A DNA stretch of 39,743 nucleotides from Halothiobacillus sp. (lineage in GTDB: Bacteria > Pseudomonadota > Gammaproteobacteria > Halothiobacillales > Halothiobacillaceae): positions 1 through 39,743 of the forward strand of contig JAABTF010000021.1 of assembly GCA_011389965.1 (NCBI GenBank), given 5' to 3'. The notes under the pieces were generated by a model. That model saw only the letters and a program-made list of their open reading frames with translations. It was not told the origin of the DNA and did not search any database. Shown here piece after piece: positions 28,044 to 30,979 of the stretch (positions are counted from its first letter, which is position 1; every line of letters starts with the position of its first letter). The position numbers were made by a program, and so were the translations under genes.

Positions 28044-28228
28044 CTGTCATCCTCGTCATCTGGATTCGGGCGGCGGCCGGGATGCCATCGCGGCGGCGCC
28101 GGTAAATGGCGGCCATGGTAGCCCAGATACCCGGCGGGGGCACGGGAGGAACCGGAACCCGCCACGTCACACATGGTCCAAATTGCATACAATCCACGAT
28201 GCCCCGCTGTCACACCGGAGAAAGACCC

Positions 28229-28837
28229 TTGGCTGCCATCCCCTCCATCCAACGCGCCCGTCGACTGGCCATCGCGGCACTCGCCCCGCTCGCCGCGTTG
28301 TTCCTGCTCGGCATGGCCACGCCGCCGGGGCAGGCCGACCAGACGCAGACGCCCGCCGCGTCGGACGACGTGCCCCTGATGAGCGACCTGAAGAACGTCC
28401 AGGCCGACCTGGAATACATGCGGGAACAACAGGCCCCCATGTTGATGTTCTTCCACGCCACCTATTGCAGCTACTGCCGTACGGTCGACGAGGAATTCCT
28501 GCAAACCATGGCCGAGGACGACAGCTACCACGGACGGCTGATCATCCGCCGGGTGGAGATCGATTCGGCCACGCCGGAGATCGAATGGCAGGGCACGTCC
28601 TACACGCCGGTCGAGTTCGCCCGGTTGCAGGGGGTGTATCTGGTGCCCGAGGTGATTTTCTTCGCTCCCGACGGCCGCCAGGTGGTCGACGAACTCAAGG
28701 GAGTGACCGTGCCGGACTTCTATCCCCAGTACCTCGACCAGCGCCTGCGCGCGGCCGAGCGCTGCATTGAGAACCCGGATCTGCCCGTCTGCACCGACGG
28801 GATCGACCGGCCACGACGCGACCTGACGGCCCCTTGA
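28229..28837 (+). CDS. Secreted thioredoxin-fold protein (SoxW-like)
   Basis: Signal peptide; MLMFFHATYCSYCRTVDEEF (CSYC active site); VPEVIFFAPDG cis-Pro region. TTG start at 28229 with GGAG RBS inferred; alternative ATG 28199. Confidence 0.82.
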   Translation: MAAIPSIQRARRLAIAALAPLAALFLLGMATPPGQADQTQTPAASDDVPLMSDLKNVQADLEYMREQQAPMLMFFHATYCSYCRTVDEEFLQTMAEDDSYHGRLIIRRVEIDSATPEIEWQGTSYTPVEFARLQGVYLVPEVIFFAPDGRQVVDELKGVTVPDFYPQYLDQRLRAAERCIENPDLPVCTDGIDRPRRDLTAP

Positions 28838-29006
28838 GCCAGTGGCCGATGGGTCAGCAACCGGTTGAGCCGGCTAACAAATCGCAGTAGTTCACTCTGG
28901 CATCGTCGTCTAACCTTGTGCATGATCAGGAAACCGGCAGCCGCGCAGGTTGTCGTAGTGTGTACGCGGCCTGGCCGCGCGAACCCTAACGAGAGGATCT
29001 GACAAG

Positions 29007-29237
29007 ATGAAAGCGCAATCCAAGAAGCACCTGCTGATCGGCTCGACTGCCCTGGCCACAGCCTTGGCCGGCTCCACTGTCATGGCCGCGGGCAACAGCA
29101 ACCCGTTCGCCTCTGAATCCACCCATGCGGGCACCTTCCAGACCGCCGAAATGGCCTGCGGCTCCGGCCAGTGCGGCAGCAGCATGGACGACGAGAAGGG
29201 CGACGACGACAACGGTGACGACAAGGACAAGTCCTAA
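29007..29237 (+). CDS. bufA: Small secreted MNIO-RiPP precursor, bufferin/HvfA-like
   Basis: 76 aa; signal peptide ending VMAA; Cys-containing motif ACGSGQCGSS; acidic tail DDEKGDDDNGDDKDKS; followed by DUF692 and DUF2063 genes. Confidence 0.78.
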   Translation: MKAQSKKHLLIGSTALATALAGSTVMAAGNSNPFASESTHAGTFQTAEMACGSGQCGSSMDDEKGDDDNGDDKDKS

Positions 29238-29372
29238 AACCGCGTCCTGACGGCACCGGCCCGCTTGGGCCGACGCCCTGACTGAAGGTCGCCGGCCGTC
29301 GGCCGTCGGCCCACAAACACCCCGGCCGGTGGCTCGCCGCCATCGGTCATACAGCATTCCGGGAGGCCTGCC

Positions 29373-30218
29373 ATGAGCCCCCAATCCTCCAGCCAGCACG
29401 TTCCCGTCGGCATCGGCCTGCGTCGCGGTCCGCTCATGCGCGAGATCGAGGAGCAGCGCCCCGACATCGATTTCCTCGAGGTTGCGCCCGAGAACTGGCT
29501 GCGCTTCGGCGGGCCGGTCAAGGAGCGCTTCAAGGCGCTGCTCGAGGACTACCCGCTCTACACCCACGGCCTGTCGCTGTCGATCGGCGGCCCGGCGGAG
29601 CTCGACCTCGATTTCGTCGACGCGGTGGGCGAGTTCCTCGACGAATACCGGCCCGCGCTCTACAGCGAGCACCTGTCGTTCTGCTCGGACAACGCGCACC
29701 TCTACGACCTGATGCCGATCCCCTTCACCGAGGAGGCAATCGAGCACGTCGTCGCGCGCATCGACACGGTGCAGCAGCGCCTCGGCCGCCGGCTGGTACT
29801 GGAGAACGTCTCCTACTATTCGCCGGTCGAATCCACCATGGACGAGCGGACGTTCATCCTGAAAATCCTCGAGCGTTCTGGCTGCGACCTGCTGCTCGAC
29901 GTCAACAACGTGTTCGTCAACAGCGTCAACCACGGCTACGACCCCTACGCCTTCATCGACTCCATGCCCGCCGAGCGGGTGCGTTACCTGCACGTCGCCG
30001 GGCACCACCAGGTCGAGGAAGATCTGATCATCGACAGCCACGGCGCGCCGGTCAGCGCCCCGGTGTGGGACCTGCTCGAGCACACCTACCGCCACGTCGG
30101 CCCGGTGCCGACGCTCCTGGAACGCGATTTCGACATCCCGCCGCTCGACGAGCTGATGGGCGAGGTCGCGCAGATCCGCCGCGCCGCCGAGCGGGCGCTC
30201 GGCAGCCGGGCCGCCTGA
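29373..30218 (+). CDS. bufB: MNIO family (DUF692) RiPP-modifying oxidase, BufB-like
   Basis: GIGLR, FLEVAPENW, THGLSLSIGG, YSEHLSF, LENVSYY, LLLDVNNVFVNSVNHGYDP, HVAGHH, DSHG, ERDFDIPPLDEL. Confidence 0.93.
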   Translation: MSPQSSSQHVPVGIGLRRGPLMREIEEQRPDIDFLEVAPENWLRFGGPVKERFKALLEDYPLYTHGLSLSIGGPAELDLDFVDAVGEFLDEYRPALYSEHLSFCSDNAHLYDLMPIPFTEEAIEHVVARIDTVQQRLGRRLVLENVSYYSPVESTMDERTFILKILERSGCDLLLDVNNVFVNSVNHGYDPYAFIDSMPAERVRYLHVAGHHQVEEDLIIDSHGAPVSAPVWDLLEHTYRHVGPVPTLLERDFDIPPLDELMGEVAQIRRAAERALGSRAA

Positions 30219-30979
30219 TGGGATCGAGCTTCAAGGAAACCCAAGAGGCCTTCACCCGGTACGTGCGTGACCCGGAAGCCAACCCACCGCCGCCGGGCAG
30301 CAAGCCCGAGCGGATGGCCTGGTACGCGAACCTGTTCTTCAACAATATCGACGGCACGTTGGCGAACGCCTTCCCGGCGCTGCGCGCGAGCCTCGACGAC
30401 GATGGCTGGCAGGCACTGACCCGGCCGTTCTTCCGCGACCACCCGGCGCATTCGCCGATCCTGCGCGACCTGCCGGGGGAGTTCCTTGCCTTCCTCCAGG
30501 AAAGGCCCGAGTTGACCGACTGGCAACGCGAACTGGCCGCCTACGAGCTGGCACGCTTCGATCTGATGGCCGAGGACTCCGCACCCGCCCCGTCCGATCT
30601 CGACGCGCAAGGGGACCTGCTCGCCGGTCAGCCGGTGGTCTCCTCGCTGGTCCGCCTGATGGTGACCGCCTACCCGGTCGACCGCATCGCCGCGAGCCTC
30701 GAGGCTGGCGAGACACCCGCGATCCCGCCGGAGGGCATGCATCATCTTGCCTTGCACCGCGACGCAAACGGCGCACCGTTTGCGCTGACCCTCTCGCCCG
30801 GCAGCGCGCAACTATTGCTCGCGCTCACCGAGGCCGAGGACCGCACCGGCCGCGAGATCGTCGCGCAGCTGGCCGAGGTCTTCGGCCGGCCCGCCGACGA
30901 ACTGCTGGGCTTTGCCGGCGAGCAGCTGGCACAGTGGCGCGGACAGGGCATCCTGCTGGGGGCGCGTCCGCCGGACTGA
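30218..30979 (+). CDS. bufC: DUF2063 family protein, BufC-like RiPP partner
   Basis: Start overlaps bufB stop (TGATG); FTRYVRDP, RMAWYANLFFNNIDGTLANAFPALRA, FFRDHPAHSPILRDLPGEFLAFL. Confidence 0.92.
   Translation: MGSSFKETQEAFTRYVRDPEANPPPPGSKPERMAWYANLFFNNIDGTLANAFPALRASLDDDGWQALTRPFFRDHPAHSPILRDLPGEFLAFLQERPELTDWQRELAAYELARFDLMAEDSAPAPSDLDAQGDLLAGQPVVSSLVRLMVTAYPVDRIAASLEAGETPAIPPEGMHHLALHRDANGAPFALTLSPGSAQLLLALTEAEDRTGREIVAQLAEVFGRPADELLGFAGEQLAQWRGQGILLGARPPD

What the first reader, a model, noticed from the sequence alone, without database searches (positions are those of the whole stretch)
29007..30979. Compact MNIO (DUF692) RiPP cluster of bufferin/HvfA type: precursor, MNIO enzyme, DUF2063 partner
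Seen: a 76-aa secreted peptide followed by a DUF692 protein and a DUF2063 protein, the latter two translationally coupled (TGATG). Established: MNIO enzymes such as MbnB, and DUF692/DUF2063 pairs in bufferin and HvfABC-type clusters, modify Cys residues (oxazolone/thioamide or thiooxazole) of metal-binding RiPPs, often with a role in copper handling. Inference: this cluster makes a Cys-modified periplasmic metal-binding peptide. There is no nearby DoxX-type membrane protein or ECF sigma/anti-sigma pair, so it is a minimal version.
Basis: partly seen in the sequence, partly recalled or inferred. Interest (0 to 1): 0.82.

Follow-up and report, generated by a model that had tools for sequence, protein, structure and literature searches.

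The report
Two-cysteine oxazolin-type copper-peptide cluster
This sulfur-oxidising bacterium carries a stripped-down version of a known three-gene system that probably converts two cysteines of a small exported peptide into copper-binding rings; the system is known, but the very small, lysine-free peptide is a new family-specific variant of it.

Summary
A 76-aa signal-peptide-bearing ORF (29007-29237) precedes an MNIO gene (29373-30218) and an overlapping DUF2063/RRE partner gene (30218-30979). The MNIO and partner pass NCBIfam's HvfB and HvfC cut-offs; the MNIO does not pass the bufferin (BufB) one. So this is the oxazolin/HvfABC (captophorin) kind, not a bufferin. The precursor matches no library family over cut-off, but a profile of canonical EGKCG-type HvfA precursors finds it (E 2.4e-10), and a Halothiobacillaceae precursor profile finds canonical HvfAs in return. 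The window is Guyparkeria-like. The cluster is conserved and syntenic in ten Guyparkeria genomes and several Halothiobacillus. All 20 such loci have reduced or altered precursors; in Guyparkeria a single cassette (EMACGxG[QK]CG, two Cys, canonical Lys mostly lost) replaces the EGKCG arrays. HvfB carries family-specific changes (E214 to V/I/L, N254 to D/E). No DoxX was found in any Guyparkeria genome searched. Two covarying RNA hairpins lie between precursor and enzyme genes. Most likely product: a periplasmic peptide with two 5-thiooxazoles (-8 Da) that binds Cu(I). Chemistry and copper role are inferred from characterised homologues. Verdict: new variant of a known kind, moderate interest.

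The parts
29007..29237 (+). hvfA-like precursor, 76 aa: signal peptide, NPF-containing leader, core EMACGSGQCG, acidic tail
   Evidence: ORF; conserved in 10 Guyparkeria genomes, dN/dS 0.096; canonical HvfA profile E 2.4e-10
29148..29177 (+). core cassette E48-M-A-C-G-S-G-Q-C-G57 with Cys51 and Cys56, the predicted sites of modification
   Evidence: C51, G52, C56, G57 invariant in the Halothiobacillaceae precursor alignment
29373..30218 (+). hvfB: MNIO-type maturase, 281 aa
   Evidence: NF003818 HvfB over cut-off, PF05114; His/Asp/Glu positions of the family invariant in 105 HvfBs; nearest solved structure 3bww, E 1.4e-68
30218..30979 (+). hvfC: DUF2063 partner with C-terminal PqqD/RRE-like domain, 253 aa
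   Evidence: NF050145 HvfC over cut-off; PF09836, PF22106, weak PF05402; solved relative 3dee, E 9.8e-8
29287..29311 (+). RNA hairpin 1 in the hvfA-hvfB intergenic region
   Evidence: covarying in 10 Guyparkeria genomes: three of nine pairs with changes on both sides
29324..29348 (+). RNA hairpin 2, just upstream of the hvfB ribosome-binding region
   Evidence: four of nine pairs with changes on both sides; whole structure 94.7% paired, 0/500 shuffles as good
28869..28903 (+). block upstream of hvfA conserved in Guyparkeria (GGCTAMCAAATC...CTCTGG), possible promoter or operator
   Evidence: present in nine of ten Guyparkeria loci; the exact 12-mer is unique in this genome
28106..28837 (+). periplasmic thioredoxin-like protein (CSYC motif), syntenic neighbour; membership in the system uncertain
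   Evidence: PF13899/PF13098; adjacent in Guyparkeria and in Halothiobacillus G013 and G023; in G017 about 2 kb away

Best explanation
This is an hvfABC-type captophorin (oxazolin) cluster with a reduced precursor. HvfC's RRE-like domain would hold the precursor in the cytoplasm. HvfB, an iron-dependent MNIO, would oxidise Cys51 and Cys56 of the EMACGSGQCG cassette to two 5-thiooxazoles (loss of 4 H each, 8 H in all). The Sec signal peptide would then send the peptide to the periplasm, where the two thiolates bind Cu(I) and limit copper and copper-driven oxidative damage. The RNA hairpins between hvfA and hvfB probably help make more precursor than enzyme. Shown here: gene content, homology, conservation, synteny, covariation. 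Inferred from characterised homologues: the modification, export, copper binding and physiological role.
For: HvfB and HvfC equivalog models pass. The canonical HvfA profile finds the precursor at E 2.4e-10 (34.6 bits). The best non-precursor ORF among 339 tested has E 0.66; 2000 sequences with the signal kept and the mature part shuffled reach at most 16.8 bits. Reciprocally, a Halothiobacillaceae profile retrieves EGKCG-type HvfAs across the class, all 15 readable matches outside Guyparkeria. The RR 17-18 and Asp252-Phe253 residues of Lys-Cys MNIOs are invariant or nearly so (PMC13097082). In vitro FonBC did not modify a one-repeat peptide, gave -8 Da with two repeats, and tolerated Ala in place of Lys (EAACGEGACG) (PMC13097082). 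A two-Cys MmrA cassette also loses 8 H (PMC12538549). Precursor dN/dS 0.096.
Against: The second half-site SGQCG lacks Glu and Lys, and in FonA the equivalent Glu6 mattered for turnover. Copper function is not tested here and no copper gene is known to adjoin the cluster. Two Cys give a small binding capacity compared with EGKCG arrays. The acidic tail could serve another metal. ECF/anti-sigma and MsrAB neighbours in Halothiobacillus point to oxidative stress as much as to copper.
Confidence: 0.78

Rival explanations
1. A true bufferin (Buf1 DUF2282 or Buf2) cluster.
For: Same gene order and the same enzyme superfamily; BufB model E 4.8e-86.
Against: Below the BufB cut-off while HvfB passes; no DUF2282 in the genome; two Cys instead of four or six; no Cys-Lys motif; Phe253, not the Asp of Cys-Lys MNIOs.
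Confidence: 0.04
2. The peptide is HvfA-derived but the family has shifted its chemistry: HvfB with D/E254 and V/I/L214 makes only one thiooxazole, or a different Cys modification.
For: N254 (85/85 canonical) is D/E in 20/20, directly after catalytic Asp-Phe; E214 (96%) is V/I/L in 20/20; long stem branch of 1.02.
Against: All family His/Asp/Glu positions checked, RR and Phe are kept; a precursor with Ser in place of Lys (L045) goes with unchanged E/N, so the changes are not simply tied to Lys loss; one clade means one evolutionary event.
Confidence: 0.12
3. The system mainly serves envelope oxidative (hypochlorite-like) stress, or a metal other than copper.
For: Halothiobacillus relatives have ECF sigma plus RskA-like anti-sigma next to hvfA, and MsrA-Trx-MsrB or DsbH/DsbD-type proteins downstream of hvfC; in H. 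influenzae the homologous operon is RpoE2-dependent and HOCl-induced, with msrAB (PMC7907618).
Against: 5-thiooxazole peptides characterised so far generally bind Cu (PMC13097082); those neighbours are absent next to the cluster in Guyparkeria.
Confidence: 0.3
4. The 76-aa ORF is not the substrate; the MNIO acts on another peptide elsewhere.
For: No library model names the ORF over cut-off.
Against: Conserved position directly before hvfB in all ten Guyparkeria loci, purifying selection, homology to HvfA in both directions.
Confidence: 0.03

Closest known systems
Oxazolin, HvfA/HvfB/HvfC (Haemophilus influenzae)
   Same: HvfB and HvfC equivalog matches; homologous exported precursor with Cys-Gly motifs
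   Different: Two Cys instead of six modified sites; EMACG/SGQCG instead of EGKCG repeats; acidic tail; no DoxX gene; no adjacent ECF sigma
Fontiphorin, FonABC (Fontimonas thermophila), captophorins
   Same: Minimal three-gene cluster; same MNIO specificity residues; the in vitro minimal substrate FonAPE also has two repeats
   Different: FonA has seven modified sites with Lys-Cys; here one cassette, Lys lost; enzyme differs from canonical HvfBs at 214 and 254
Bulbicupramide, MmrABC (Microbulbifer)
   Same: Two-Cys cassette as the unit of modification, HvfABC-like genes
   Different: Five to eight Cys in EGKCG units
Bufferins Buf1 (DUF2282) and Buf2
   Same: Exported precursor, MNIO, DUF2063 partner, thiooxazole and copper
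   Different: Different precursor families, Cys number and MNIO specificity residues; no match here

Membership tests
HvfABC/oxazolin-type captophorin | MNIO of HvfB kind | tested here: met
   NF003818 388.6 bits, cut-off 360; in the HvfB tree it falls in its own family clade beside HvfBs of EGKCG clusters
HvfABC/oxazolin-type captophorin | DUF2063 partner with RRE (PME type 1) | tested here: met
   NF050145 193.8 bits, cut-off 142; PF09836 + NGO1945_C + weak PqqD
HvfABC/oxazolin-type captophorin | Exported precursor homologous to HvfA, encoded before hvfB | tested here: met
   E 2.4e-10 with the canonical profile; reciprocal retrieval; signal peptide judged by sequence only
HvfABC/oxazolin-type captophorin | Repeated EGKCG (Lys-Cys) 5-mers | tested here: not met
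   Only EMACG and SGQCG; Lys-Cys absent at the first site, and at the second in nine of ten Guyparkeria genomes. EGKCG is the commonest motif of the class, not its only one; membership is therefore claimed as a variant
HvfABC/oxazolin-type captophorin | 5-thiooxazole formation and Cu(I) binding | not testable with these tools
   Needs co-expression and MS/NMR
Buf1 bufferin | DUF2282 precursor with four conserved Cys | tested here: not met
   No PF10048 in the genome; two Cys
Buf1/Buf2 bufferin | BufB-type MNIO | tested here: not met
   NF050167 288.3 bits, cut-off 310
Methanobactin | MbnB-type MNIO with MbnC | tested here: not met
   TIGR04159 64 bits, cut-off 325; partner is HvfC

The most novel reading that the evidence does not exclude
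A family-wide re-engineered captophorin: one Lys-free two-Cys cassette plus a co-adapted HvfB (E214 to aliphatic, N254 to acidic) yields a discrete, small two-thiooxazole ligand that may hold a single Cu(I), as methanobactin does, instead of the aggregating many-site sponge made from EGKCG arrays.
Probability: 0.3. Interest if true: 0.55.

Novelty: new variant of a known kind. Interest (0 to 1): 0.42.

Why it matters
Laboratory work had to truncate FonA to two repeats to get a tractable substrate; here is a natural precursor of that size, with its own enzyme pair, suited to structures and copper stoichiometry. It shows that the widespread HvfABC system can lose its Lys-Cys repeats, DoxX and adjacent ECF regulation and still stay under strong purifying selection. 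It also gives enzyme positions (214, 254) for testing substrate selectivity, and a covarying RNA element between precursor and maturase genes.

Tried and rejected
Bufferin and methanobactin membership: rejected. The Pfam nec1 hit of the precursor (17.6 bits, cut-off 27) is below cut-off and taken as chance. Idea that E214/N254 changes follow from loss of substrate Lys: weakened, because L045 (Ser-Cys precursor) keeps E/N. Idea that the upstream block is an ECF promoter shared with other genes: not supported, no other exact copy in the genome, and Guyparkeria has only distant matches (24-30% identity) to the Halothiobacillus hvf-linked ECF. Sigma-70 and terminator scans found nothing; no Rfam match for the hairpins. 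No plasmid record encodes the precursor. An initial upstream alignment with mixed orientation was discarded and redone.

Full report
What is there. Three same-strand ORFs lie between a divergent hem operon with a thioredoxin-like gene and radC. 29007-29237 encodes MKAQSKKHLLIGSTALATALAGSTVMAAGNSNPFASESTHAGTFQTAEMACGSGQCGSSMDDEKGDDDNGDDKDKS. 29373-30218 is an MNIO of the HvfB kind (NF003818 388.6 bits, cut-off 360; BufB NF050167 only 288, cut-off 310). 30218-30979 is HvfC (NF050145; DUF2063 plus an NGO1945_C/PqqD-like C-terminus). The nearest solved structures are 3bww and 3dee, both already tied to RiPP clusters of this kind in PMC13097082.

Where it comes from. The MNIO is about 85-98% identical to those of other Guyparkeria genomes (halophilic sulfur oxidisers, Halothiobacillaceae). 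Each Guyparkeria genome searched has one MNIO. The order hemXDC divergent from trx-hvfA-hvfB-hvfC-radC is shared by Guyparkeria and by Halothiobacillus genomes G013 and G023; G017 has about 2 kb more between trx and hvfA. The genus name Halothiobacillus for the second genus of the family (g4) rests on one named locus (L036) and is otherwise inference.

The precursor is a reduced HvfA. Upstream of hvfB, 60 of the relatives from other families have precursors with ENPF...SGY...EGKCGEGKCG repeats. Guyparkeria instead has NPFASESTHAGTFQTAEMACG[SA]G[QK]CGSS or close variants, followed by a variable acidic tail. Six Halothiobacillus loci have LAEM[AS]CGG...CGG, and four have three or four SCG repeats, mostly SCGANMKK. 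A profile built from 46 canonical HvfAs scores the window precursor at 34.6 bits (E 2.4e-10); the mature part alone gives 23.9 bits, the signal peptide alone 4.2; 2000 sequences with a shuffled mature part reach at most 16.8. A profile of Halothiobacillaceae precursors matches 22 further genomes in a class-wide sample of 369; the 15 matches read were all HvfA-like with more Cys. NG86 dN/dS across ten Guyparkeria genomes is 0.096.

The enzyme. The HvfBs of Guyparkeria and Halothiobacillus group apart from those of EGKCG clusters, with a long stem. The conserved His/Asp/Glu positions checked, Arg17-Arg18 and Asp252-Phe253 are kept; position 214 changes from E (96%) to V/I/L and 254 from N (85 of 85) to D/E in all 20. 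Because these are one clade, this is one correlated event; and L045, whose precursor has Ser in place of Lys, keeps E/N. In the family's third genus, G018 has a canonical EGKCG precursor; its HvfB match covers only half the protein and was too short for the tree.

How it most likely works. In FonABC a peptide with two repeats was modified and one with a single repeat was not, each Cys loses 4 H to become a 5-thiooxazole, and Lys to Ala is tolerated (PMC13097082). MmrA's two-Cys cassette also loses 8 H (PMC12538549). EMACGSGQCG has that spacing, so two thiooxazoles are predicted. 5-thiooxazole peptides studied so far generally bind Cu. None of this chemistry was tested here.

Regulation and setting. 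No DoxX was found in Guyparkeria, and among five Halothiobacillus genomes only G023 has one, close to its second MNIO. In Halothiobacillus an ECF sigma gene and an RskA-like anti-sigma gene lie directly upstream of hvfA (L113) or divergent from it (L116; ECF also near hvf in G019 and G021); G017 keeps only an ECF fragment beside hvfA. Downstream of hvfC lie an MsrA-Trx-MsrB fusion (L036) or a DsbH/DsbD-like protein (L116). Guyparkeria has only distant matches to that sigma factor. The likely reading is loss of dedicated ECF control in the Guyparkeria line (inference). This fits H. influenzae, where RpoE2 drives both msrAB and the hvf/doxX operon under hypochlorite (PMC7907618). Between hvfA and hvfB two hairpins covary across ten genomes (seven pairs with changes on both sides; 0 of 500 shuffles; sliding weakens the signal). 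The structure was derived from these same sequences, so the sliding control leans in its favour.

Comparison and novelty. Minimal ABC clusters without DoxX are already known (fonABC), and PMC12452194 reports hundreds of small exported Cys ORFs (1-18 Cys) before MNIOs of this large group; whether its supplementary table lists these was not checked. A paper search found no mention of these clusters in Halothiobacillaceae.

Noticed in passing
L003, L004, L006, L008 (and L033, L122, L126), between hvfB and hvfC: A 136-bp element with terminal inverted repeats (TTCCTCGAAAACC...GGTTTGTCGAGGAA) sits exactly between hvfB and hvfC in four of ten Guyparkeria genomes; it is absent from the window. It looks like a MITE or REP-like element.
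   Followed up: partly
window 29235-29372: Two covarying RNA hairpins between precursor and maturase genes, no Rfam match; possibly a differential-expression element.
   Followed up: yes
L048, L049, L053 (Methylophaga), upstream of hvfB: No EGKCG precursor within 1 kb upstream; instead a 247-250-aa signal-peptide protein with a CGCP motif precedes hvfB.
   Followed up: no
L041, L054, L060, L061, L064, L067, L074, L078, L086, L092, L093, L095 (Woeseiaceae-like): A well-supported clade of 12 HvfBs for which no EGKCG-type precursor was found in the 1 kb upstream.
   Followed up: no
L113:4876-6191, L116:4151-5621, G017:C8:641644-641832: ECF sigma/RskA anti-sigma pair next to hvfA in Halothiobacillus, decaying to a fragment in G017.
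   Followed up: partly
window 28106-28837: Periplasmic thioredoxin-like protein with a CSYC motif, syntenic with hvfABC in the family; could keep the Cys or thiooxazole thiols reduced.
   Followed up: partly
window 28869-28903: Conserved block GGCTAMCAAATC...CTCTGG upstream of hvfA in nine of ten Guyparkeria loci; function unknown.
   Followed up: partly
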